Notes under the pieces: generated by a model
The model's database searches: none
The model's input: the letters and a program-made list of their open reading frames with translations, nothing else
Told to the model about the DNA's origin: nothing
Translations under genes and position numbers: made by a program
Shown: piece by piece, positions 1 through 36,116 of the stretch
Position numbering within the stretch: position 1 is the first letter of the stretch
Layout of the letters: each line of letters begins with the position of its first letter
Assembly: GCA_009602725.1 (NCBI GenBank)
Contig: WELB01000031.1
Span: 913,483-949,598 of the forward strand
Reading direction: 5' to 3'
Length of the DNA: 36,116 nt
Source: Spirogloea muscicola
Lineage: Eukaryota; Streptophyta; Zygnematophyceae; Spirogloeales; Spirogloeaceae

Positions 1-447
1 CTACACAGGCAAAGCACTAGCGCATAGGCGCAGCGGAAGACAGGCCCCGTGGCGCCGCCGTCCGGCGGCGACTCCACCTCCTGGGCGCAGGCCGGCGCAG
101 CAGGCCCCGCAGCAAGGTGCGGCGGCGGCTGCGGCGGCGAGCAGCGGCAAGGCTGCTCCTGGGCTTCACCGGCTCGAACTCCTTCTGAGCCTCAGCCCCC
201 AAGGCTCTTCGTGCTTCCCCGTGCCACCCCCCCTCCAGGGGTGTGAGCGGGTCGCCCCAAGGCCTGTCCTTGCGGGCGGGCCCAGATTCTCCCTTGAACG
301 GGCGGATCCTAGCGAGGGTATTTCTGGACGGGCGGGCCACTTGCCCGGCAAGCCAGCCCGCCACCTGGCGGGCCCACTTGTCCCAAATAGCCGGTTATGT
401 CACGCCAACGGAGCCATGTGGCTCGAACAAACGGCTGGTTCATTACA
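1..447 (-). mobile_element. Family 1 LTR, 3' LTR of element A (cut by window start)
   Basis: On the minus strand the LTR starts TGTAATGAACC at 447 and runs off the window at position 1; about 90 bp are missing compared with the full copy at 5852-6393. The polypurine tract of element A lies immediately upstream (450-461), so this is the 3' LTR. The same sequence recurs in both orientations through the first 20 kb. Identity is judged by eye. Confidence 0.85.
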
Positions 448-2851: not shown

Positions 2852-3880
2852 GCGCGCTGCCTTACTTGCTCGCTCGCTGGTGCACACCAGTCTTGCGATG
2901 TCCTCGCCGTCGCCGTACACGGCGCCTTTGGCGCCAAATGGCTGACCTACTTCACCGCCTTGCGCGGCGAGCAGCGGCCTGCCGCCACGGGCAGCAGGGC
3001 GAGCAGCCTGGCTTCCATGTCGCCGGGTCCCTCGCCCAAGTTTTCCGGACGCGCCTGGGCTTTTGCGGTCCACTTGCGCGCAGGCCGCGCTCTGGCGGCG
3101 GCTCCAGCTTCCGTCAGGGCGACGTCTTTCCGCCTGCTAGCTACTCAGATTTGCATCTACTGACGAGAGGTTACTGAGAGTTCGCTTACTGCTGTCTCAG
3201 TCCTTAGCACTCCGACTCCTTCAGACCATGTCCATTCTTTTGGGCTGGCCTCTCCCAGCCACCAGTCAATCTGGCCGCGCTTGCTAGTGCACGGCCGAGC
3301 CCTCCTCGGGAGGCAGAGCGGTCGGCTGCTGTGGCAGCGGCTGCTGCAGGGCCAGCTGCTGCGGCAGTGGCTGCTGCGGAGCACGCCCAAGAGGGGCACG
3401 CCCACGAGGGGCACGCCCACGAGGGGCTCGCCCAAGCGGGGCTCGCCCACGAGGGGCACGCCCACTAGGGGCACGCCCAAGCGGGGCACGCCCAAGAGGG
3501 GGCACGTCGAGGTGGGAGCCGGAGGCCAGGAGGGCTTGTCGGCCGGGGTCTTGCAACGCGTTGCACTCCTCACTCGGGATCTGGCAGCAGCCCAGTCTAC
3601 GACGGATCCAGCTCAACACCGGCTTCTTGCGAAGATCTGCGCAGAGCAGCGCGCCCTCGTCCGGCAGGCGCTGAAGAGCGGCACATGCAAGAGGTGGATG
3701 CCTCGTTGCATCTGATGCGCAAGAGCAGCGGCAACCCTGAGCATGGACTTGCCAGGGCCCATGAACCCAGACAATTCTCAGGTCACGATGATCGGGGAGG
3801 GTTGCAGCCATGGCTGGATGAAATGGACGAATGGTCCGTGTGCTCCAACACGGACGCGGGGGCGCGCGTGCGCCTCCAGC
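2852..3880 (+). repeat. Inverted copy of a retroelement 5' region: leader plus Gag N-terminus
   Basis: This plus-strand block mirrors 5489-3956 of the minus strand. Positions 2852-2905 match the reverse complement of 5427-5488 almost base for base (TTGCGCGCTGCCTT...GATGTCCT). Positions 3288-3868 match the reverse complement of the Gag N-terminal region. The intervening leader 2905-3287 has no counterpart in the minus arm, but resembles repeats at 13262-13466 and 14490-14800. The Gag copy carries an in-frame TAG in its repeat (3464-3466) and frame slips, so it is not functional. Confidence 0.75.
3381..3500 (+). repeat. 15-bp minisatellite, 8 units, coding a His-rich Gag repeat (inverted copy)
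   Basis: Eight units of exactly 15 bp, consensus GCACGCCCACGAGGG, stand head to tail. In the gag frame each unit encodes HA(H/Q)(E/A)G. The sixth unit has a GAG-to-TAG change. The minus-strand counterpart is at 4324-4434. Confidence 0.9.
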
Positions 3881-4323
3881 CACCGCACTCCTCGGGCTCA
3901 GAGCGCTTCTTCAAAGTGTTCCACCACTCCCGGGGCTCCCCTGAGAGGTAGGTGGCGCGCGCCCCCGCGTCCGTGTTGGAGCACACGAACCATTCGTCCA
4001 TTGCATCCAGCCATGGCTGCAAACCTCCCCGATCATCGTGACCGGAGAATTGTCTGGGTGCATGGGCCCTGGCAAGTCCATGCTCAGGGTTGCCGCTGCT
4101 CTTGCGCATCAAAAGCAACGAGGCATCCACCTCTTGCATGTGCCGCTCTTCGGCGCGCTGCCAGACGAGGAGGGCGCGCTGCTCCGCGCAGATCTTCGCA
4201 AGAAGCCGGTGTTGAGCTGGGTCCGTCGTAGACTGGGCTGCTGCCAGATCCCGAATGAGGAGTGCAACGCGTTGCAAGTCCCCAGCCGACAAGCCCTCCT
4301 GGCCTCCGGCTCCCAGCTCGACG

Positions 4324-4434
4324 TGCCCCTCTTGGGCGTGCCCCGCTTGGGCGTGCCCCTCGTGGGCGTGCCCCTCGTGGACGAGCCCCGCTTGGGCGTG
4401 CCTCTCGTGGGCGTGCCCCTCGTGGGGGTGCTCC
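4324..4434 (-). repeat. 15-bp minisatellite coding HA(H/Q)(E/A)G in Gag
   Basis: About seven 15-bp units, read on the minus strand, encode a run of His-Ala-His-Glu-Gly variants within the Gag N-terminal half. One unit has diverged (LVHEG). It is the minus-strand partner of the array at 3381-3500; unit number differs between the two arms. Confidence 0.85.
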
Positions 4435-4484
4435 GCAGCCACTGCCGCAGCAGCTGGCCCTACAGCAGCCGCTGCCACAGCAGC

Positions 4485-5851: not shown

Positions 5852-6393
5852 TGTAAGGAACCTCGCCCTACACACGCAGTCAGGGTGAGCAGTCCTTCTC
5901 GAGTTCGGCTGTAGGGGGGTTAGGGAGCAACCCACTACACAGGCAAAGCACTAGCGCATAGGCGCAGCGGAGACAGGCCCCGTGGCGCCGCCGTCCGGCG
6001 GCGACTCTACCTCCTGGGCGCAGGCCGGCGCAGCAGGCCCCGCAGCAAGGTGCGGCGGCGGCTGCGGCGGCGAGCAGCGGCAAGGCTGCTCCTGGGCTTC
6101 ACCGGTTCGAACTCCTTCGAGCCTCAGCCCCAAGGCTCTTCGTGCTTCCCCGTGCCACCCCCCTTCCAGCGGTGTGAGCGGGTCGCCCCATGGCCTGCCA
6201 GGCGGCGGGCCGAAGATCCTCCCTTGAACGGGCGGATCCTAGCGAGGTTATTTCTGGACGGGCGAGGCCCGCCTCTGGGCGGGCCACTTGCCCGGCAAGC
6301 CAGCCCGCCACCTGGCGGGCCCACTTGTCCCAAATAGCCGGTCATGTAATGCCAACAGAGCCATGTGGCTTACCAAATGGCTGGTTCATTACA
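5852..6393 (-). mobile_element. Family 1 LTR, 5' LTR of element A (complete)
   Basis: On the minus strand it runs TGTAATGAACC (6393) to GGTTCCTTACA (5852); the termini form an 11-bp imperfect inverted repeat. Length is 542 bp. It is followed by a canonical PBS. It is nearly identical to the 3' LTR at 1-447, apart from small indels around 6190-6290. No clear TATA box is visible; the equivalent position reads GCACGAAGAGCC. Confidence 0.92.
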
Positions 6394-9898: not shown

Positions 9899-10312
9899 TC
9901 AGAGCCCCTTGATTAGCCTCGACTGCCACTTGGCATCAGATGTCACTTTCAGGGAGAAAATTAACGAGTGAGCTTCGTGAAAATCAGTGCCATATACGCG
10001 TAGTCCTGTAAAAATTTGCGGCAATACCTCGTGAAAGTTGCGCAAAAGTAGCGCAACTGCGGCACATTTCGCGGCACAGGCCAGTCCAATACGAATAGAG
10101 ATCACTATCGGTCAACGCAAACCCACTTCTGCCTACTTCCCTTAAGTATGCCCACTTTGATCTATTAGACACACACTTGGTTCGTTTCGCGTACAACCGA
10201 TTTTCACGAGAAACTGCAGCACTCCTCGCAGATGCACCACGCATTCTTCATGTGTGTGAGACTGACCACCAGAATAGTTTCCAAGTATGCGAGCACGATA
10301 TCATACAAGATA
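9899..10312 (-). pseudogene. Second, more diverged RT fragment (minus strand)
   Basis: On the minus strand, IVLAYLETILVVSLT aligns with FVLVYLDDILVFSKT of the neighbouring RT, and RLYAKRTKCVSNRSKWAYL with its QLYAKIETCLFNQPKLTYL. The YxDD catalytic pair is replaced by ET. Down to about 9990 the DNA parallels 10670-10500. It is an older RT copy fused to the end of the next fragment at about 10312. Confidence 0.65.
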
Positions 10313-11276
10313 CCGATGCCGATCAAAGAGGCGTCATATACTACTTCAAAAGGCACGCCTTCTCGAGGCAAGACCAAAACGGGTGGATGCACCAGGACCC
10401 GTTTGATATTCTCGAATGCCTTCTGGCATTCGGACGTCCACACCCAGCTGACGTCCTTACGAGTGAGCTTCATAAGAGGGGATGCCATACTTCCGTATCC
10501 TTGTAGAAAATTGCGGAAGTCATTTGCGAATCCCAAGAAGGAACGCAACTGTGGCACATTCCGTGGCACTGGCCAGTCCTTTACTATTGCAGTCTTTCTG
10601 GGGTCGACGCGTACCCCGTCTTTGCCCACAACACGCCCTAAGTATGTCAGCTTAGGCTGATTAAAGACACGTTTCGATCTTGGCATACAACTGCTTTGCA
10701 CGCAGTAATTGCAGCACTTGCCGCAGGTGTCGTAAGTGCTCCTCAGGCGTCTTACTGAATACCAGTATGTCATCCAAATAGACCAGCACAAAGTCATAGA
10801 GTAGGGGGCCAAAGACTTCGTTATCACAGCCTGAAATTCGACAGGTGCATTGGTTAGACCATAGCTGAGCACCTCGAACTGGGAGTGACCGAGCGGCGTC
10901 GGAACGCCGACTTCGGGACGTCCTCAGGGGTGACACGAATTTGATGATGACCGCTTTGCAAGTCGAGGGAGCTGAACACACTAGCTCCTGCTAGACGTTC
11001 GAACAGGTCATCAACTCGAGGCAAAGGATACCGATTCTTGGCAGTGAGCTTGTTCAGGGCTTGATAATCAAGGCACATTCGAAGACTACCATCCTTTTTT
11101 TTCGCGAAGAGGATTGGTGCACCGTATGGCGACTGGGAAAGCTCTATGTGCCCTTTCCGTAGCAGTTCCTCCACTTGGGACTGCATCTCCCGAAACTCGG
11201 GAGGACTCAGTCGATACTCAAAAAGAATGAACGAGGTTCGAGGGGGCTTGGGGAAGCGCTCAACTAAAACAAGCAC
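10313..11276 (-). pseudogene. Reverse transcriptase core to start of RNase H (minus strand)
   Basis: The minus strand encodes EEQ-type Ty3/gypsy RT blocks in order: [55 protein letters not shown], then VYLDDILVFSKT (catalytic YLDD near 10780) and LRSFLGFANDFRNFLQGYG. FEVVYDAS, the beginning of RNase H, is last. Frameshifts lie near 10870 and 10680. It starts abruptly at 11230 (YRLSPPEF) and ends abruptly at 10312. The catalytic residues are intact but the gene is not. Confidence 0.85.
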
Positions 11277-11509: not shown

Positions 11510-11959
11510 AAAGGCAAAGCACTAGCGCATCCGCGCAGCGGAAGACAGGCCCTGTGGCGCCGCTGTCCGGCGTCAACTCCACCTCCTTGAGGCGCAGGCC
11601 GGCGCAGCAGGCCCCGCAGCAGAGTGCGTCGGAGACTGCGGCGGTGAGCAGCCGCAAGGCTGCTCCTGGGCTTCACCGGTTCGAACTCCTCCTGTCGAGC
11701 CTCCGCCCCAAGGCTCCTCGTGCTTACCCATGCCACCCCCCCTCCAGGGGTGTGAGCGGGTCGCCCCATGGCCCGCCTTGCGGCGGGCCAAAGATCCTCC
11801 CTTGAACGGGTGGATCCTGGCGAGGGGTATTTCTGGAGGGACGGGGCCCGCCTCTGGGCGGCAAGCCAGCCCGCCACCTGGCGGGGCACTTGTCCCAAAT
11901 GGCCGGTCATGTAATGTCAACAGAGCCGTGTGGCTAAGCCAAACGGCTGGTTCATTACA
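11510..11959 (-). mobile_element. Family 1 LTR, truncated
   Basis: The minus-strand start TGTAATGAACC is at 11959. The copy ends early at about 11510 (GGCAAAGCACTAGCGCA), so the last 90 bp of the LTR are missing. Element B RNase H sequence resumes directly at 11960. Confidence 0.85.
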
Positions 11960-12797: not shown

Positions 12798-13261
12798 TGA
12801 GTTCGGCTGTAGGGTGTTCAGGCACCAACCCACTACACAGGTAAAGCACTAGCGCATCGGCGCAGCGGAAGAGAGGCCCCGTGGCGCGGCCGTCCGGCGG
12901 CGAATCCACCTCCTGGGCGCAGGCCGGCGCAGCAGGCCCCGCAGCAGAGTGCGGCGGCGGCTGCGGCGGCGAGCAAAGGCAAGGCTGCTCCTGGGCTTCA
13001 CCAGTTCGAACTCCTCCAGTCGAGCCTCCGCCCCAAGGCTCCTCGTGCTTCCCCGTGCCACCCCCCCTCCAGGGGTGTGAGCAGGTCGCCCCATGGCCCG
13101 CCTTGCGGCGGGCCAAAGATCCTCCCTTGAACGGGTGGATCCTGGCGAGGGGTATTTCTGGACGGGCGGGGCCCGCACCTGGGCGGGCCACTTGCCCCAA
13201 ATGGCCGGTCATGTCATAACAACAGACCAGTGTGGCGTGACCAAACGGCTGGATCATTACA
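12798..13261 (-). mobile_element. Family 1 LTR, 3' truncated
   Basis: The minus-strand start TGTAATGATCC is at 13261. The copy continues to GAGTTCGGCTGTAGGG near 12805, where it abuts the family 2 LTR. The last 45 bp or so of the LTR are missing. It is close in sequence to 11510-11959. Confidence 0.85.
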
Positions 13262-18309: not shown

Positions 18310-18567
18310 TGCCCAAACGGAGCCGCGCACGCTACTCGCTCTCGCCGGCGGACTGGCGGCGCAACGAGGCGGATCCGCAGCCGGACAGGCCGGAGGCCGG
18401 TTCGGTGAGCAGCGACAGCGACTGCGAGGACAGTGTGCCCTTCTTGAGCGCGGAGAGCGGTCCCGGCATGGACCAGGAAAGAGGCTGCGGCGGCAGCAGG
18501 GAAGCGCTACACAGGGAGGTCGGATGGGACCTCCCTGGTGGAGCTCCAGATGAGGGTGGAGGCGTCC
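18309..18567 (+). pseudogene. Gag N-terminal fragment (element C)
   Basis: The frame starts MPKRSRARYSLSPADWRRNE and continues through an acidic stretch with SSDSDCEDSVPFLSAESG, compatible with the start of a Gag. It is cut at about 18567, where family 1 LTR sequence begins. Gag coding resumes only after 20101. Assignment to Gag rests mainly on position before the Gag-like region at 20190; I recognise no motif in this piece. Confidence 0.45.
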
Positions 18568-18923
18568 CCGCAGAAGAGTGCGGCGTCGGCTGCGGCGGCG
18601 AGCAGCGGCAAGGCTGCTCCTGGGCTTCCCGGGCTCGAATTCCTGTCGAGCCTCAGCCCCCAAGGCTCCTCGTGCTTCCCTGTGCCACCCCACCTCCAGG
18701 GGTGTGAGCGGGTCGCCCCATGGCCCGCCTTGCGGCAGGCCAAAGGTCCTCCCTTGAACGGGTAGATCCTGGCGAGAGTAATTTGGGACGGGCGGGGCCC
18801 GCCTCTGGGCGGGCCCTTTGCCCGGCCAGCCAGCCCGCCACCTGGCGGGCCACTTAGCCCAAATAGTCGATTATGTAATGACAACGGAGCCGTGTGGCTA
18901 AATCAAACGGCCGGTTCAGTACA
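18568..18923 (-). mobile_element. Family 1 LTR, truncated, with adjoining element 3' end
   Basis: The minus-strand LTR start is at 18923. The copy ends within the Gly/Ala-coding GC-rich part at about 18568. It is followed upstream by the polypurine tract and pol 3' end (18924-19175), so it is a 3' LTR inserted into element C gag. Confidence 0.8.
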
Positions 18924-20101: not shown

Positions 20102-20910
20102 ATGCGCCTCGCAGCAAAAGAGAAGCCTGTCGCGTATCGGCGGCTGAGGAGGGTTCCTGAGGATAGGGACGCCGGCCAAGCAGGAGCGCCTGCTGGTTGA
20201 CCCCATCGGTCATTTCTGTCAGCTGCTGGCAAGGCCGTTTAAGAGTGACACGGCCGCCAAGGTGGCGGAGCTCGTCAACTTCCGGCGGCTGCCCAGGAGG
20301 ACGTGATGGTCATGGCCCAACGCATGAAGCAGCTGCGGCGGGACACTGGGAGGATGACGGAGGTCGACGGAGCGCAGAAGTCCTGGAGGCGCTGGGTGGA
20401 TGCAAGAAGGGCGCCTGGCTGGAGCAGCAGGTCTTCACCGCCTACGGCAGCAACTTCACCATTGACCAGGGGGCCGAGCTCGCGGGCGAGGTGAAGCGCC
20501 ACTTCGTGAGGAAGGCGGTGGAGGTGGCGGTGTAGGCGAAGGGCGAAGTGAGGCGGGCTGCCCAGCCTCGACAGTGGTCGGTGTCCCTGCCCTGGCAGTG
20601 GCGGGAGCCTACCAAGCCGTCCGCAGCTTGGCGGCAGCGGTCGTGCCAGCGGGGCCGGCTCGGGCCATTCAATGTTACACCTGCGGCCAGCCGGGGCATG
20701 TCCGGCGGGACTGACTGCCCAAGGGGGGCCGGCATGCGGCGCCCGCACTGCGGCAAGGCGGGCCACGGCGCGGACGCATGTTGGACCCTCCACCCCGAGC
20801 AGCGGCCGGCGCACCTGCAGGCGCATGCGGCGCTCCAGGCGGCCAGGCCGCGGCGGCTGCACAAGGGAGGGATGGGCAGGCGCCAGCTGCCGCCCAGGCC
20901 AGCTCATCAA
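20102..20910 (+). pseudogene. Gag middle and zinc knuckles (element C)
   Basis: The plus strand encodes a helical region (DPIGHFCQLLARPFKSDTAA; LEALGGCKKGAWLEQQVFTA; AELAGEVKRHFVRKAVEVAV). A nucleocapsid follows with CYTCGQPGHVRRD interrupted by a 4-bp duplication (GACTGACTGC at about 20710), then a second knuckle-like CGKAGHGADACWTLHPEQ. Several frameshifts are present. The double knuckle and its order before a DTGA protease support Gag. It differs clearly from the Gags of elements A and B, so element C is another lineage. Confidence 0.7.
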
Positions 20911-21299
20911 GCACCGAGGTGGAGCTGGTGAAGAGAGAGCTGAGGGAGTTGCAGGCCACGATAGTGGCCAAAGCTGCGGTGGCGCAGTGGATCGGAGGCG
21001 GAGAGATGACGAGGCGGCGGACCACCACCTTCGCAACGGCTTGGGGGTAGAGGTGGTGGACGCTGGGATGGCGGGACGGCATGGGCACGGCAGCCGCCAG
21101 CCGACAGGGAGCGCGGATCGCCTGGCGGGCGAGGAACACGGCCGGAGGAGCAGGGCACTTGCTACCCGTTGTCCTTGGCACGGGTGGTGGAGGGGGCGGC
21201 GGACGGCCCAGCGGCGGTCTACTCGCAGCCCGCGGTGGCCCGGGCAGGCGCAGGGTGCGTCACCGCACATCGTTCGACGGCCGCGCTCATGAGCACGCC

Positions 21300-22270
21300 G
21301 CTGCCGTCATTGGCGGAGGTGGGCTGCTCGGAGGCGATGCTTCGGAAGGCGCTGCAGCAGCACCCTCTGGGCATGCTGGAGGGCGACGTGACGGGTTCGA
21401 GTGAGCCACCTCAGGCCGCGCGGGGGGCGGACACCCCGACCACCTCCACCATCAGTGGGTCTTCCTAAGGGGGCCCCTGCAGGTCGCTTCAACCTGAGCC
21501 TGGGGTGGAGGAAGCAAATGTACTGCCTGACCAGTTGCTGCGGCGTTCCCTGGCACAGAGCCAGCGGCAGTGGCGCAGTTGCATGCACCCAGCACTCGCG
21601 TTTTGGGGGCTGCCCATGCAGGGGGAAGCCCGTCAATTTCCAAGCGGCGGGTGGCGGAGCGCGTGAGGGTCATCCCCAATGTGGCGCTGTTGGCGAATGA
21701 AGGTGGCTGTATCACCTTCGACGGGAAGGCGCCACAGCGCGTAAAATTGGATACCGGCGCGCAGCCGGTGCTGCTGGGCCGCAGCATGTCGCGACTGCAG
21801 GTCCTGCGCGTGCAGCCTCATTTTACGCGCTGTGGCGCTTTCCCGTTGAAGGTTATACAGCCACCTTCATTCGCCACCAGCGCCACGTTGGGGATGACCC
21901 CACGCGCTCCGCCACCCGCCGCTTGGGAAGCGACGGGCTCCCCCCTGCATGGACAGTTCCCGAGACGCGAGTGCTCGGTGCATGCAACTGCGTCACAGCC
22001 GCCGGCTCCGCAGCAGGGGTTGCCGCAGCAACTGGTGCAGGCAGTACATCCACTTCCTCCACCCCAGGGCATTCAATGCGTGCAGGCTCAGCTTGAGGCG
22101 ACCTGCAGGGGCCCCTTTCGGAAGCCCCATAACTATTAGAGGTGGTCGGATGGTCCGCCCCCTGGGTGGGCTTAGGTGGGTCCACTCGGACCCGCCACGT
22201 CGCCCTCCAGCATGCCCGGAAGGTGCTGCTGCAGCACCTTCCGAGGCATCGCCTCCGCGCAGGCCAACGT
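21300..22270 (+). repeat. Fold-back inverted duplication of the gag-protease region (element C)
   Basis: Left arm 21300-21747 and right arm 21820-22270 are reverse complements over about 450 bp with scattered mismatches. The arms meet at GCGCCACAGCGCGTAAAAT and ATTTTACGCGCTGTGGCGC, leaving a 72-bp loop. The loop carries the protease active site KLDTGAQPVLLGRSM (DTGA codons 21750-21761). The arms contain the upstream protease-linker coding region in both orientations. The second half of the protease lies 2.4 kb downstream at 24160-24457. Confidence 0.85.
21640..21830 (+). pseudogene. Retropepsin N-terminal half (element C)
   Basis: The plus frame reads RVIPNVALLANEGGCITFDG, then VKLDTGAQPVLLGRSMSRL, the aspartic protease active site in its usual setting. 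It turns into the inverted arm after residue 85 or so. The rest of a matching protease (YDVLLGTEFFKPTG) is at 24160-24457. Confidence 0.75.
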
Positions 22271-22420: not shown

Positions 22421-22598
22421 TGTGGTGATGCTTCTTGCCACTTCTTGCCACTGGTGATGCTTCTTTGCATGTTTGCTCAGTTGGTAGTGAGGCCATGCAG
22501 GGCAGGCTGCTGCTACCCAAGCAGAGTCCTGGCCTGTAGGCGGAGTGCCAGGTGTGGCACCTCGACGCATTGTGAGCGCTATACGGTCAAGCACGGCA
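22421..22598 (+). mobile_element. Family 3 LTR (short)
   Basis: It starts TGTGGTGATGCTTC at 22421 and ends AAGCACGGCA at 22598. It shares AGTGAGGCCATGCAGGGCAG, GAGTCCTGGCCT and CTCGACGCATTGTGAGCGCT with 26685-26848. An in-place repeat (CTTCTTGCCACTTCTTGCCA) lies near its start. No target duplication was found, and the preceding 20 bp are purine-rich. Confidence 0.6.
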
Positions 22599-23094: not shown

Positions 23095-23640
23095 ATGTAC
23101 ATTTGATGATAGCCGCCGCCACGGCGGCGCAGGCGGATCAGAGGCGGAGAGAGGAGGAAGAGGCGGACCATCGCCTTCGCTACGGAATTGGTGTGGAGGT
23201 GGTTGATGCAGCGATGGCGGTGCGGCATGGGCGCGGCAGCCGCAAGCCTCCAGGGGGTGCGGATCCCTTGGCGGGTAGAGAGCACGGCCGCCGTGAGCAG
23301 CAGGGCGCGCGATATCCGTTGTCGTTTGCACGGTTGACGGAGGTGGCTGCAGACGGTCCAGCGGCAGTGAATGCGCAACCAGTGGTGGTCGGAGAGGCCG
23401 TGGGGCAAGTCTCCGCGCGGCAGCTAGCGGCCGCACTTATGAGAACGCCCTTGCTGTCATTGGCAAACGTGTTTGCTCAGAGTTGGCGCTGAGGAAGGCG
23501 CTGCAGCAGCACCTTCCGGGCGCGCTGGAGGGCGACGTGGCAAGGTCGAGCGACACGCCCAAGGCCGCGCGGGGGGTGAAAATTCCCCAACCGCCTTCAA
23601 CAATCAATTAGGGGCTTTCGAAAGGGGCCCCTGCAGGTCG
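23095..23640 (+). pseudogene. Second copy of the gag-protease linker (element C family)
   Basis: The translation EADHRLRYGIGVEVVDAAMA, then GSRKPPGGADPLAGREHGRR, parallels 21010-21180 (EAADHHLRNGLGVEVVDAGM). Further on, ALQQHLPGALEGDVARSS parallels ALQQHPLGMLEGDVTGSS of the first copy. It ends in the shared module at 23605. The two copies have diverged, so this is a separate element or an old duplication. Confidence 0.6.
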
Positions 23641-23930
23641 TCTCTATCTGAGCCTGCACCCAATGATCGGGATGGAGTTGAAGAAGTGGAAGAATTTCTG
23701 CAGCAGTCCTGCATTTGGTGCCGGCGGCAGAGGCACAGTCGCATTCACCGAGCACTGGGGCCCTGGGGGCTCTGCCCATACAGGGGAGAGCCGGGCGCGT
23801 GGGGGCGGACATCCGACCGCCTACAGCGACTCAGGGGCTTCCGATGGGCTCCTGCAGGTCGATTCTACCCCTTCTGCCTGCGCTGGCATCTTTGGGTGAG
23901 AAATTGGTGGCAGTGGAGCAGCCACCAAGC
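23600..23930 (+). repeat. Recurrent 'GGGGCCCCTGCAGGTCG' module, two adjoining copies
   Basis: The sequence around GGGGCCCCTGCAGGTCG (or GGGCTCCTGCAGGTCG) with its flanks is present at 21472, 22110 (reverse), 23617, 23850 and 25858. Positions 23800-23945 closely parallel 25800-25960. It encodes a low-complexity linker next to protease or integrase. Repeated breakpoints fall beside it. Confidence 0.65.
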
Positions 23931-24165
23931 AATCGTGCCGTTGGGCAACGCTACATTCTCATCAAGGCGGAGCATGCAAGCAAGTGGGTGGAAGTTGTGG
24001 CAATCCCAGACAAGTCCAGCTCGCTGATGGCAGCTTGCTTCTTGGATCGGGTGTTGTGCCGCTTTGGGGCCTGCGCGGAGGTGCTGACCGACGGACGCAG
24101 CGAGTTCCGTGGCGACTTCGACGAGCTCGTGGAGGTGGCTCTAATCGACCACCGGACAACTTCGC
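23931..24165 (+). pseudogene. Integrase catalytic core, first half (element C)
   Basis: The plus frame gives RYILIKAEHASKWVEVVAIP, then FLDRVLCRFGACAEVLTDGR and SEFRGDFDELVEVALIDHRT. This is the D...D part of a retroviral-type integrase core, with the second catalytic Asp in LTDG. The first catalytic Asp position appears as Glu (AEH, where relatives have a D-H pair). The frame breaks off at HRTTSR. The segment that should come next (ending in the catalytic Glu) lies 1.8 kb away at 25976. Confidence 0.8.
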
Positions 24166-24457
24166 GCAGGACTTGCAGCCGTCCCCTATCGCCATAAAGA
24201 CGGCAACGGGAGGCGTCTCGGTGGGCCTGCGCCAGACCAAGGAGCCTATCTGTATCACCGTCAACAAGGGTGGTCCGGATGAAGTCAGCCAGGACCTTCC
24301 CTGCTTGCTCACGGAGGCTACTTCCTACGACGTGCTCCTTGGGACGGAGTTTTTTAAACCAACGGGGCGAGTATCGACGTATGGGAAGAGGTGGGGAGAT
24401 ATCGCCCCGGGGCTGCATGCGGAGAGGGGCGTCAGGTGGAGTTCGCACTGCAGCTGA
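24160..24457 (+). pseudogene. Retropepsin C-terminal half (element C)
   Basis: The frame contains SPIAIKTATGGVSVGLRQTK, DLPCLLTEATSYDVLLGTEF and FKPTG. The YDVLLGxxFxKPxG phrase is the conserved second half of Ty3-type proteases. It joins the broken integrase at a short shared sequence near 24165. Coding drifts out of frame at about 24420, but homologous text continues toward the methyltransferase frame (SDLCDMPQDEAATTS), suggesting one polyprotein. Confidence 0.65.
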
Positions 24458-24472
24458 TAGCTGCAGCGGAGG

Positions 24473-25720
24473 ATGGGGCCGCATTCGCTTGCTACGGAGA
24501 AGCCGTGGGTGGGTAGCGACTTGTGTGACATGCCGCAGGACGAGGCAGCCACCACGTCACTGGCACCCGTGCGGCTGGGAGCAGCTGGCGTTGGCCATAG
24601 GCCCGTGGTGCAAGCGAGGCAGGTGGAAGAGCTGGTGGACCGTGCGTGGAAGCAGCTGCCCCTGGTGGCGCAGGAGTTGCCAACGTGTCCGCCGCCGGTT
24701 GTGCAGCTGCACGGAGAGCCGCTGGTGGATAGCACGGTTATTGAGTGGCCGATCCCAGACGGTGGGGTCGTCCTAGTGGAATTCTTTGCCGGCATCGCCA
24801 CCGGGTTGGCGGCGGTGCTGGCTAACGGCGTGCGCGGCAAGCGGTACGTGTACGTTGAACCAAATCTGGTGGCGCAGGCGGCAGCAGCGCACCACACCCG
24901 GCGGCTTATAGACCAGTACCCGGAGCTGCTGACCTCGGAGGCCATCGAGGGGTACCTCACCACCCTGCCGGCTGACATCCAGCTATTGGGCCATAACACC
25001 TGGGGGGATTGGGACAGGTGGACCCGGTGGTTGCAGATTGGGAGTGCCAAGGGCATTCCAGCGCTGGTGCAGGCCGAGGGTTGGCTGACCACCGCTCGCG
25101 GCTCTTCTGGGAGTTGGAGCGTATTTTGGCGCTGCTGTAGGGGGGGCAGGAGGCCCCCCTGGCATACGTGTTGGAGAACTTGCCGGCAGGCGACGACCGC
25201 CGCACAAAAAAGCGGCGTAACTTCCAGGTTGTAGAGAGCCGCATTGGGCGCGGCGTGCCTCTGAACGCAGCTGCTCTGGGCAGCCGCGCGCACCGGCTGC
25301 GAGTGAAGTGGACCAATATGGCGCAGCCAGAGGTGGTGGCAGCTGCGGCTGCGCTAGTCAAGCGCCCAGCCGGGCTGTTAGTGGCGGACATATTGGACCC
25401 AGGAAGGATGCCTCAGCCAGTGGAGGGGGACGACATCCTCCGTTCGCGCTGTGCAACAAGGTGGGGCAGCCGCGGGCGGCGCTGCCCACGCTGGTAAGCT
25501 ACAGGGCGTCTTATGCATTCAGGAGTGGAGGGCCCGGCATGGTCTGGGACAACACCACGCAGCAACTCGAGGAGCCCCTTGCCGACGAGCGGAAGCGGGC
25601 GTTGGGCTTCCGGACCCGCACAACCGCAGCCCCTGGCTCACCGAGAGGCAGAGCCGGAAGATGTTGGGGCAGGCGATGGATCTGAGGGCTCTCAGTGGGG
25701 CGCAGGGGCTCTACATACAG
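24473..25720 (+). pseudogene. C5-cytosine DNA methyltransferase domain in the retroelement (element C)
   Basis: Motifs of DNA (cytosine-5) methyltransferases appear in order. Motif I is VLVEFFAGIATG (SAM binding, 24773-24805), followed by RYVYVEPN. Motif IV is WECQGHS with the catalytic Cys at 25045-25047; the usual Pro before it is Glu. FWELERIL comes next, then motif VI ENLP (25174-25185), an SRAHRLRVKWTN block (25282-25317) like the AHRxRYFWxN block of Dnmt3/DRM enzymes, and a motif X-like ERQSRKMLGQAMDL (about 25643-25684). Breaks are a frameshift in the G6 run at 25002-25007, a TAG at 25138-25140, a one-base loss near 25435 and another slip near 25630. It follows protease-like sequence and precedes the integrase end, so it was part of pol. 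Confidence 0.85.
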
Positions 25721-25779
25721 TGGGCAGCCCGAGCAGGCGCTGGCGGCTTTTCACTGAGGGGTGGGAGTAGAGTCGCAGC

Positions 25780-25975
25780 ACGAACAGTTGGCGCACAAGG
25801 CCGCGTGGGGGGCGGACACCCCGACTGCCTGCAGCAACGATTTGAGGGCTTCCGAAAGGGGCCCCTGCAGGTCGATTCAATTCCTTTTGCCTGCTTCGGC
25901 ATCCTTGGGTGAGGAATCGGTGGCAGTGAAGCAGCCACCAAGCACTCGTGCCGGTGGGGCGGTCCTTGCAAGGGG
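25780..25975 (+). repeat. Recurrent linker module (third plus-strand copy)
   Basis: This closely parallels 23800-23945: GGACACCCCGACTGCCTGCA, GGGGCCCCTGCAGGTCGATT, then GCATCCTTGGGTGAGGAATC. At 23945 the module leads into the first half of integrase; here it leads into the second half. Recombination between the two copies could have split the integrase. Confidence 0.65.
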
Positions 25976-26498
25976 GAGCCCGTCGCTGCATGGGGCCCAG
26001 CAGCAGGCGGATGGGCTGGCGGAGCTGATGGTCCAGACAGTCGAGAAAGGATTGCGGAAGTTTTGCCTGGAGAGGGACACCAGGGATTGGAATCTTTTCC
26101 TTCCTTGGTTGCTGATGCGGTACCGAATGAGTAAGCAGGCGGCGTTGGCGAGCTACTCGCCATACTTCTTGCTCTTTGGCAGGCATCCTCTGCTGCCAGC
26201 TGCCATCCGACCGCAGGTGGAGCCAGTGGTGGACATGAACAGCCCAGGGCGCTGGGTGGCGATCTGCGAGGAGCGCGGGAGGCTCTTCCGCAGGGTCATG
26301 CCGATGGCGATGGACAACCTGGCGGTGGCGCAGCATCGCGACAAGCTGCGTTACGCGCAGGTGCGATCGGCCAAGCACCAGCCACGGGTGATGAAGTTCG
26401 AGAAGGGCGACTACGTGTACGTGCAGCGCCAGCAGCGCAGCACCTTGGACGCGGGTGTCCGGCGGGTCGTCTTGCAAGTGAAGTGTGTGGTGGCTTGA
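25976..26498 (+). pseudogene. Integrase second half and C-terminal domain (element C)
   Basis: The plus frame continues QQQADGLAELMVQTVEKGLR, carrying the Glu expected as third catalytic residue. Next come WNLFLPWLLMRYRMSKQAAL and SYSPYFLLFGRHPLLP (the P-x-x-L-x-x-G-R motif), then HQPRVMKFEKGDYVYVQRQQ of the C-terminal domain. The frame ends with TGA at 26496-26498. The PHD finger lies in the same frame just after that stop. The expected receptor-binding end of the domain seems deleted. Confidence 0.85.
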
Positions 26499-26612
26499 AC
26501 ACCAACTATGCTGCTATGCGATCGTTGTAATGAGGGGTGGCACACTGGCTGCCTGCAACCACCTCTTGCTGAGGTGCCGGCGGGGCAGTGGTTGTGCCCG
26601 CGCTGCGCATAG
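26499..26612 (+). pseudogene. C-terminal PHD finger of element C pol
   Basis: In frame with the integrase, after one TGA, the sequence reads MLLCDRCNEGWHTGCLQPPL then AEVPAGQWLCPRCA and a stop (TAG, 26610-26612). This is the second half of a PHD zinc finger (C-x2-C...W-H-x2-C...W-x-C-x2-C). Such fingers bind histone H3 tails. The first Cys pair, expected upstream, is missing with the deletion at 26496. Position at the end of pol, where chromoviruses carry a chromodomain, suggests a chromatin-targeting role (inference). Confidence 0.75.
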
Positions 26613-26673
26613 CGCTGTCATACTTAGGATGCTTAAACCTCAAAGGATGCAGCTGCCTCAGGTCCAGGCAGCT

Positions 26674-26684
26674 GGGGGGGGGGG
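26674..26684 (+). promoter_or_regulatory. Polypurine (G11) tract of element C
   Basis: Eleven consecutive G directly precede TGTGGTGAC, the family 3 LTR start, 62 bp after the PHD stop codon. Position and composition fit a plus-strand primer. Confidence 0.7.
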
Positions 26685-26848
26685 TGTGGTGACTCTTCTG
26701 CCACAATCTTTGCAGGTCTGCTCATGTGGCAGTGAGGCCATGCAGGGCAGGCTACTGCTAGCTAACAAAGCCGAGTCCTGGCCTTGAGGCAGAGCTTCAG
26801 GTGTTGGCACTTCGACGCATAGTGAGCTCTACACGAGCAGGCACGACA
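26685..26848 (+). mobile_element. Family 3 LTR, 3' LTR of element C
   Basis: It starts TGTGGTGACTCTTC and the similarity to 22421-22598 ends at GGCACGACA (26848). At about 164 bp it is very short for an LTR. The right end is inferred only from where the three family copies stop matching. No target duplication could be tested, because the 5' end of the element is rearranged. Confidence 0.6.

Positions 26849-28168: not shown

Positions 28169-36116
<7,948 letters not shown>

What the first reader, a model, noticed from the sequence alone, without database searches (positions are those of the whole stretch)
24473..25720. A retrotransposon-borne C5 DNA methyltransferase in a (probable) chlorophyte
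Motifs I, IV (catalytic Cys), VI, an AHRxR...WTN block and a motif X-like end occur in order inside a Ty3-type element, between protease and the end of integrase. From memory, retrotransposon-encoded DNMTs have been published for dinoflagellates and charophytes (de Mendoza and co-workers, 2018). A case in what looks like a chlorophyte, paired with a PHD finger, would be a separate acquisition or a wider distribution. Motif IV reads WECQ where PCQ is expected. An element that methylates its own DNA could hide from, or bias, host silencing. This copy is dead (three frame slips, one stop), so the claim concerns the family, not this locus.
Basis: partly seen in the sequence, partly recalled or inferred. 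Interest (0 to 1): 0.92.

Follow-up and report, generated by a model that had tools for sequence, protein, structure and literature searches.

The report
Algal retrotransposons carrying a DNA methyltransferase
The broken gene in this window belongs to a family of retrotransposons, also found in green algae and a liverwort, that carry their own DNA-methylating enzyme and seem to make it in excess by placing it just before a 'leaky' stop codon.

Summary
Confirmed. The window holds a dead, rearranged copy of a Ty3-type element with a C5 DNA methyltransferase (DNMT). The family is real: in this genome 35 of 42 related RT rows have a DNMT match within 3 kb upstream on the same strand, against 0 of 30 other gypsy RT rows. 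A well-kept copy reads Gag-protease-DNMT, stop, RT-RNaseH-integrase-PHD. The enzyme is Dnmt3-class by profile and predicted fold.

A separate chlorophyte acquisition is not supported: Klebsormidium (host of the published KnitGypsy-Dnmt3) and Marchantia have the same order and lie on the same side of the DNMT tree, though the RT tree disagrees for Klebsormidium.

Not found described in the library held: (1) the stop between DNMT and RT has a tobacco-mosaic-type leaky context, in frame in 21 of 34 readable copies (shuffles: mean 0.4 in any frame); (2) a second large group has DNMT between RNaseH and integrase; (3) Glu for Pro beside the catalytic Cys ('WECQ') recurs in 94 of 211 rows. Self-methylation of new copies is inferred, not shown.

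The parts
22462..22598 (+). left terminal-repeat remnant (A-like)
   Evidence: 80% identical to 26707-26848
23106..23648 (+). gag fragment
   Evidence: tblastn with L069 gag, 64% identity, E 3e-53
23952..24167 (+). integrase core fragment (residues 148-219 of the integrase query)
   Evidence: tblastn E 1.9e-21; rve E 1.2e-4, 22.7 bits, below its cut-off of 32.6
24170..24501 (+). aspartic protease remnant, in two frames
   Evidence: matches to L067 and L069 protease pieces
24530..25937 (+). Dnmt3-class DNMT remnant in three successive frames, with stop(s); the match runs past motif X into a repeated stretch
   Evidence: tblastn with L069 DNMT, E 4.8e-170; PF00145 in frame 25000-25140
25039..25050 (+). 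motif IV WECQ with the catalytic Cys
   Evidence: direct reading; aligned family
26004..26480 (+). rest of integrase (residues 223-380)
   Evidence: tblastn E 5e-50
26508..26609 (+). PHD finger
   Evidence: tblastn with L067 PHD E 1.4e-8, and with L068 integrase-PHD through 26606
26707..26848 (+). right terminal-repeat remnant (A-like)
   Evidence: 80% identical to 22462-22598; no second B repeat found behind it

Best explanation
The window holds a dead, rearranged copy of an element related to KnitGypsy-Dnmt3: a Ty3/gypsy element carrying a Dnmt3-class DNMT and a C-terminal PHD finger. In well-kept copies Gag, protease and DNMT form the first reading frame; a stop codon in a tobacco-mosaic-type leaky context (TAG or TGA, then CAA YYA) closes it; RT, RNase H, integrase and PHD follow in the same frame (all shown). 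Most ribosomes would therefore make Gag-protease-DNMT and a minority would read through to the full polyprotein (inferred from the conserved context). The methyltransferase would be made at Gag level, enter the particle and methylate the double-stranded cDNA before or at integration, and the PHD finger would help to choose the chromatin target (both inferred).
For: Fused domains in L067 and the other copies; 35 of 42 related RT rows have a DNMT match just upstream, 0 of 30 other gypsy RT rows; Dnmt3-class by profile and by predicted fold; catalytic residues invariant in ten aligned copies; dN/dS 0.11-0.18 in six of the 15 pairs with dS under 1.5, RT controls 0.20-0.21; leaky-stop context in frame in 21 of 34 readable copies, shuffle mean 0.42 and maximum 3 in any frame; CAR YYA called essential for readthrough in TMV (PMC2754532, passages); 26 protease-DNMT frames from other organisms end after the DNMT, several with shared tails.
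Against: No readthrough, methylation or expression was measured. The 34 copies are related, so the motif count shows conservation, not independent origins; 13 of 34 lack the strict motif in frame. Nine of the 15 pairs have dN/dS of 0.25-0.92, seven of them with L026 or L036, and 121 of 136 pairs were saturated or above dS 1.5. Klebsormidium's DNMT gave no activity in yeast, called inconclusive by its authors. In L067 the Gag knuckle and protease fall under Pfam's cut-offs; in L069 they pass.
Confidence: 0.68

Rival explanations
1. The DNMT was captured separately in a chlorophyte lineage, and the likeness to Klebsormidium is convergent.
For: In the second RT tree Klebsormidium P0185 sits beside the downstream form (95/88), not with this genome's RTs; outgroups are thin.
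Against: Same protease-DNMT-RT order, same side of the DNMT tree in 200 of 200 bootstrap trees, split repeats in one copy here as in the KnitGypsy-Dnmt3 legend.
Confidence: 0.2
2. The stop before RT is not read through: RT is made from another message or by reinitiation, and the shared CAAYYA is inherited without function.
For: Readthrough was not measured; L003 has TAC in place of the stop; several foreign copies are one frame without a stop (P0145, P0147, P0155, P0157, P0160).
Against: The amino acid after CAA varies (Leu, Pro, Ser, once Arg) while the bases stay YYA, once CGA, in three subfamilies; both frames stay in one register.
Confidence: 0.2
3. The DNMT is kept for something other than DNA methylation (RNA methylation, a structural or decoy role), at least where motif IV reads ECQ.
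For: Pro beside the catalytic Cys is Glu in 94 of 211 rows; the Klebsormidium enzyme was inactive in yeast (inconclusive).
Against: Cys, Glu-Asn and both Arg are kept; SymbioDIRS-Dnmt3 domains methylate CG in yeast.
Confidence: 0.25
4. Chance juxtaposition of a host DNMT pseudogene with a retroelement.
For: The window copy is itself a patchwork, with the cassette inside the integrase.
Against: 35 of 42 against 0 of 30; open fused frames; the same fusions in other organisms.
Confidence: 0.01

Closest known systems
KnitGypsy-Dnmt3 of Klebsormidium nitens (PMC5890265; P0185 is a K. nitens record)
   Same: Gypsy domain set, Dnmt3-class DNMT without rearranged motifs, protease-DNMT-RT order, DIRS-like A-coding-B-A-B repeats (one copy here), selection on the DNMT
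   Different: Here a stop in leaky context parts DNMT from RT, whereas P0185 is one frame and the paper speaks of the Pol ORF; a PHD finger here, none found in P0185 (a partial record); the RT tree separates them
Downstream-form DNMT-PHD gypsy elements of chlorophytes (P0001, P0028, P0049, P0118, P0121 and others)
   Same: Homologous DNMT, RT, integrase and PHD
   Different: DNMT lies between RNase H and integrase; split from the upstream form by one branch of the DNMT tree (95/78)
SymbioDIRS-Dnmt3 and SymbioLINE-Dnmt of Symbiodinium (PMC5890265)
   Same: A DNMT carried in a retrotransposon frame
   Different: DIRS has a tyrosine recombinase and LINE has neither integrase nor LTR; here a DDE-type integrase (rve)
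Tobacco-mosaic-type leaky stops; gypsy elements proposed to read through, such as rice RIRE2 (named in PMC2754532)
   Same: Stop followed by CAR YYA
   Different: Here a DNMT stands on the Gag side of the stop
Chromoviruses (chromodomain gypsy elements; recalled, and named)
   Same: A chromatin-reading domain behind integrase
   Different: A PHD finger, not a chromodomain; carries a DNMT

Membership tests
KnitGypsy-Dnmt3 | Gypsy pol domains (RT, RNase H, rve integrase) | tested here: met
   L067 second frame: RVT_1, RT_RNaseH, H2C2, rve; the window copy itself lacks RT and RNase H
KnitGypsy-Dnmt3 | Dnmt3-class DNMT with key residues, under purifying selection (paper: Ka/Ks under 0.2) | tested here: met
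   dN/dS 0.11-0.18 in six of 15 usable pairs, 0.25-0.92 in nine
KnitGypsy-Dnmt3 | DIRS-like repeat order A-coding-B-A-B | tested here: met
   One copy, C328: A 96.2%, B 98.6%; the C2 copy shows A and one B only; the window shows only a repeat pair
KnitGypsy-Dnmt3 | DNMT within one Pol reading frame with RT | tested here: not met
   A stop parts DNMT from RT in this genome (L003 has a sense codon), so I call it a relative, not a member
KnitGypsy-Dnmt3 | RT of the same lineage | tested here: inconclusive
   P0185 lies beside downstream-form RTs (95/88), with one gypsy family as outgroup
Dnmt3 class | Best profile and fold match to DNMT3, linear motif order | tested here: met
   DNMT3A E 6.6e-15, M.HaeIII 4.6e-10; the 50 listed fold matches are DNMT3-family entries
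Dnmt3 class | Clade with host Dnmt3 genes | not tested
   The only outgroup was one DNMT3A fragment
Active C5 DNA methyltransferase | Catalytic Cys (IV), Glu-Asn (VI), RxR (VIII) | tested here: met
   Invariant in the ten aligned copies
Active C5 DNA methyltransferase | Pro-Cys dipeptide of motif IV | tested here: not met
   Glu-Cys in the window and in 4 of 6 sister copies scored with it (L023 Gly); Pro-Cys in 11 of 17 rows of this genome
Active C5 DNA methyltransferase | Methylates DNA | not testable with these tools
   -
TMV-type leaky stop | Stop followed by CAR YYA between two frames in one register | tested here: met
   21 of 34 readable copies; none in the window copy, which lacks RT
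TMV-type leaky stop | Measured readthrough | not testable with these tools
   -
Chromovirus | Chromodomain behind integrase | tested here: not met
   PHD there in L067 and L068; no chromodomain family in the scans

The most novel reading that the evidence does not exclude
One old gypsy lineage of the green plants captured a Dnmt3 between protease and RT, turned it into a Gag-level product by a leaky stop, and in one branch moved it to between RNase H and integrase; along the way it repeatedly exchanged the Pro beside the catalytic Cys for Glu while selection kept the domain. Such elements would methylate their own cDNA, so that the parasite, not the host, writes the first epigenetic mark of each new insertion.
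Probability: 0.38. Interest if true: 0.88.

Novelty: new variant of a known kind. Interest (0 to 1): 0.74.

Why it matters
Retrotransposon DNMTs were reported from dinoflagellates and one charophyte as independent events (PMC5890265). The relatives found here suggest a widespread, long-lived family in green algae and bryophytes. The leaky stop gives a concrete dosage hypothesis: the enzyme is made with Gag and not with the scarcer RT and integrase, as expected if it acts throughout the particle. Marchantia, a tractable plant, carries relatives, so whether an element methylates its own new copies becomes directly testable. The recurrent Glu in motif IV is a natural experiment in enzymology.

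Tried and rejected
Tried without gain: Pfam on the other window pieces (besides 25000-25140 only a sub-cut-off rve hit and two matches at E 0.14 and 0.2); relatives of P0001 in viral contigs, none; a B repeat at the window's right end, none; the strict leaky-stop motif in window 24000-26700, none. A first idea that repeats of about 850 bp at 82-84% on both sides of the C2 copy are its LTRs was dropped, because the match between the C2 and C328 copies begins and ends at the A and B repeats.

Rejected: chance juxtaposition; a reassigned stop code (L067 stays open for about 2,290 codons with one in-frame TAG; inference, not tested further); WECQ as decay. The host was not identified. Print was searched (held open-licence library only; listings seen). 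PMC6338049 (passages) says in general terms that DAM- and DCM-encoding Ty3/gypsy and DIRS elements occur in green algae and charophytes, so presence in green algae is not wholly unreported. PMC12344493 (section 5 and passages) mentions DNMT3 in LTR Copia and DIRS elements and 'ChloroDNMTs', with which I did not compare. PMC5890265: outline, abstract, sections 6, 9, 10, 11 and a term search. Other papers opened (PMC3627910, PMC9998398, PMC12542154, PMC9033089, PMC2754532, PMC10952607): passages only.

Full report
WHAT IS THERE. The window (G000:C31:913483-949598 of an unnamed 153 Mb genome in 471 contigs) holds a broken gypsy element between repeat remnants at 22462-22598 and 26707-26848 (80% identity). 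Matches to relatives give gag 23106-23648, an integrase piece 23952-24167, protease 24170-24501, methyltransferase 24530-25937, the rest of integrase 26004-26480 and a PHD finger 26508-26609. The integrase pieces are residues 148-219 and 223-380 of the query, so the protease-DNMT cassette sits inside the integrase, and no RT or RNase H match lies in the element. The DNMT match runs through three frames with at least one stop. The frame at 25000-25140 passes PF00145's cut-off.

THE FAMILY IN THIS GENOME. PF00145 rings at 71 places, some of which may be host genes; two open pieces of the window's DNMT ring at 112 and 76 places, fragments and the window itself included. L067 (contig C2) has one frame with a CCHC knuckle and aspartic protease (both under Pfam's cut-off) and DNMT (46 bits, over it), one stop codon, then a frame with RT, RNase H, integrase and PHD, all over their cut-offs. 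In L069, of the window's subfamily, knuckle, protease and DNMT pass their cut-offs, the knuckle in a separate frame. L068 (C157) has DNMT in one frame and integrase plus PHD in another; no RT matched there. Of the first 42 rows of the RT search (150 listed), 35 have a DNMT match within 3 kb upstream on the same strand; of 30 rows that I picked from the more distant gypsy RTs, 0 do. Seven of the 42 lack one.

CLASS OF THE ENZYME. A profile of ten domains from this genome (A1) finds DNMT3A first in the PDB (E 6.6e-15), then among others M.HaeIII (4.6e-10), HhaI (1e-8), DRM2 (1.8e-6), DNMT2-type enzymes (0.0012 to 0.032) and DNMT1 (1.2). The AlphaFold model of the L067 domain (pLDDT 81.8, pTM 0.84) matches DNMT3A best (8te1_A, E 1.4e-13, TM 0.77 by target length), and the 50 matches listed are DNMT3-family entries. 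The motifs run in linear order, unlike DRM (recalled). Catalytic Cys, the Glu-Asn of motif VI and both Arg of RxR are invariant in the ten. Of 136 pairs of copies, 15 had dS under 1.5: six gave dN/dS 0.11-0.18 and nine 0.25-0.92, seven of these nine with L026 or L036, which look decayed; two RT pairs gave 0.20 and 0.21. So the domain was under selection about as RT was, with later decay.

THE LEAKY STOP. Where the DNMT frame meets RT, copies share a stop codon at one place, followed by CAA and then TTA, CCA or TCA, once CGA. Of 35 distinct copies one is masked. Of 34, 21 have (TAG|TGA|TAA)CA[AG]YYA in frame (all are TAG or TGA with CAA) and 23 in any frame within 105 bases; 300 dinucleotide shuffles average 0.42 copies with a maximum of 3. 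Of the 13 misses, two have the motif out of frame (L057, L066), eight are one or two changes away (L003 with TAC for the stop, L008, L073, L075, L084, L085, L087, L089), and three (L080, L081, L086) show nothing in frame. The amino acid after CAA varies while the bases stay, so the nucleotides rather than the protein seem kept. CAR YYA behind the stop is described as essential for readthrough in tobacco mosaic virus (PMC2754532, passages). All three subfamilies that I distinguish have it, including copies like the window's (L055, L077, L083). The copies are related, so the count shows conservation, not independent origins; readthrough was not measured.

REPEATS. The C328 copy reads A (L092 2995-3382), coding, B (L093 3254-3462), A (3462-3856, 96.2%), B (3858-4066, 98.6%). 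That is the DIRS-like order which a legend of PMC5890265 gives for the K. nitens element. It was seen in one copy; the match of the C2 copy ends after the first B.

BEYOND THIS GENOME. Three protein searches returned 6, 123 (120 listed) and 88 proteins, overlapping. There are two placements. Among the 122 proteins have RT or RNase H before the DNMT, 2 have the upstream form and 6 cannot be assigned (the query was itself of the downstream form). Among P0002, P0003 and P0123-P0199 (79), 41 are upstream form, 32 downstream form and 6 unassigned. Of the 41, 26 are protease-DNMT frames that end after the DNMT. Some of these are partial records, but groups share a tail (GNG[AI]SSSN in four, LSAT[KQE] in six), which suggests the same stop elsewhere; their DNA could not be read. 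Others of the upstream form run on into RT without a stop, among them Klebsormidium P0185, protease-DNMT-RT-RNaseH-integrase.

TREES. DNMT tree, 92 rows: upstream and downstream forms are split by one branch (95/78, 200 of 200 bootstrap trees), with Klebsormidium, Marchantia and this genome upstream; the window's subfamily groups with Marchantia and P0002-like rows (92/90). First RT tree, 58 rows: upstream, downstream and DNMT-less RTs of this genome are each one side of a branch (86/86, 94/79, 100/100). Second RT tree, 59 rows, with more foreign upstream forms: downstream is one clade (97/95), while upstream is not, and Klebsormidium with P0176 sits beside downstream (95/88). This fits an upstream ancestor and one relocation, but the outgroup is a single gypsy family and the DNMT root rests on one long fragment; likely, not shown.

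MOTIF IV. Glu stands before the catalytic Cys in 4 of 17 rows from this genome (the window piece, read WECQ directly, was missed by the pattern), 7 of 38 upstream, 78 of 145 downstream and 5 of 11 unassigned rows, 94 of 211 in all, against Pro in 95; at least six changes are needed on the tree among 77 scored rows. That Pro is near-invariant in other C5 enzymes is recalled. In downstream rows the residue after Glu-Asn in motif VI also varies (Val, Thr, Ala, Ser; 35 of 145 rows did not fit the pattern).

MECHANISM. Shown: fused frames, Dnmt3 class, past selection, a stop in leaky context between DNMT and RT. Inferred: mainly a Gag-protease-DNMT product, packaging, methylation of cDNA, reading of histone tails by the PHD finger. 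The PHD matches KMT2D, KMT2C, CHD4, KAT6A, DPF3, PHF21A, UHRF1 and BAZ2 fingers, several of which read H3 tails (recalled). Self-methylation is the idea of de Mendoza et al., who saw CG methylation in yeast for SymbioDIRS-Dnmt3 and an inconclusive negative for the K. nitens domain.

NOVELTY. Ten searches of an open-licence library brought up PMC5890265 as the one paper that describes gypsy-borne DNMTs in detail; its main text has no hit for chlorophyte, Volvox, Chlamydomonas, PHD, green alga or Ty3. PMC6338049 mentions such elements in green algae in general terms. I found no description of the leaky stop, the PHD pairing, the two placements or the Glu state, but most subscription papers are not held. 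Verdict: new variant of a known kind.

Noticed in passing
window 3328-4484: Large inverted repeats (arms 201 and 163 nt, 96% complementary) with runs of a 15-base tandem repeat in the arms.
   Followed up: no
window 94-264, 6027-6197, 11601-11771, 12926-13096, 18555-18725: A 171-nt direct repeat family of five copies, mostly about 5.6-5.9 kb apart.
   Followed up: no
window 20455-22270: A second gag/protease stretch of the same family, part of it inverted (inverted arms).
   Followed up: partly
window 10285-11216, minus strand: An RT match (30-42% identity) of another retroelement.
   Followed up: no
window 28859-32616, minus strand: Open frames that read like an ABC transporter gene in exons (by eye).
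   Followed up: no
L067 7769-8000 and L091 16-801: About four tandem units of roughly 250 bp beyond the C2 copy.
   Followed up: no
L069 2365-2510 and 4609-4754: Direct repeats of 146 bases (99.3%) on either side of protease-DNMT in the window's subfamily; similar repeats flank the cassette in the window (23793-23945, 25799-25958; 81%), a possible route for the rearrangement.
   Followed up: partly
P0001, P0018, P0019, P0116, P0158: A G-patch domain beside DNMT and integrase in some downstream-form proteins.
   Followed up: no
P0047, P0055: Downstream-form proteins under transcriptome-style EukProt names, labelled complete ORFs, which hints at transcription.
   Followed up: no
L003: The stop before RT is TAC (Tyr) in this copy; TMV's leaky UAG is reported to be read as tyrosine.
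   Followed up: no
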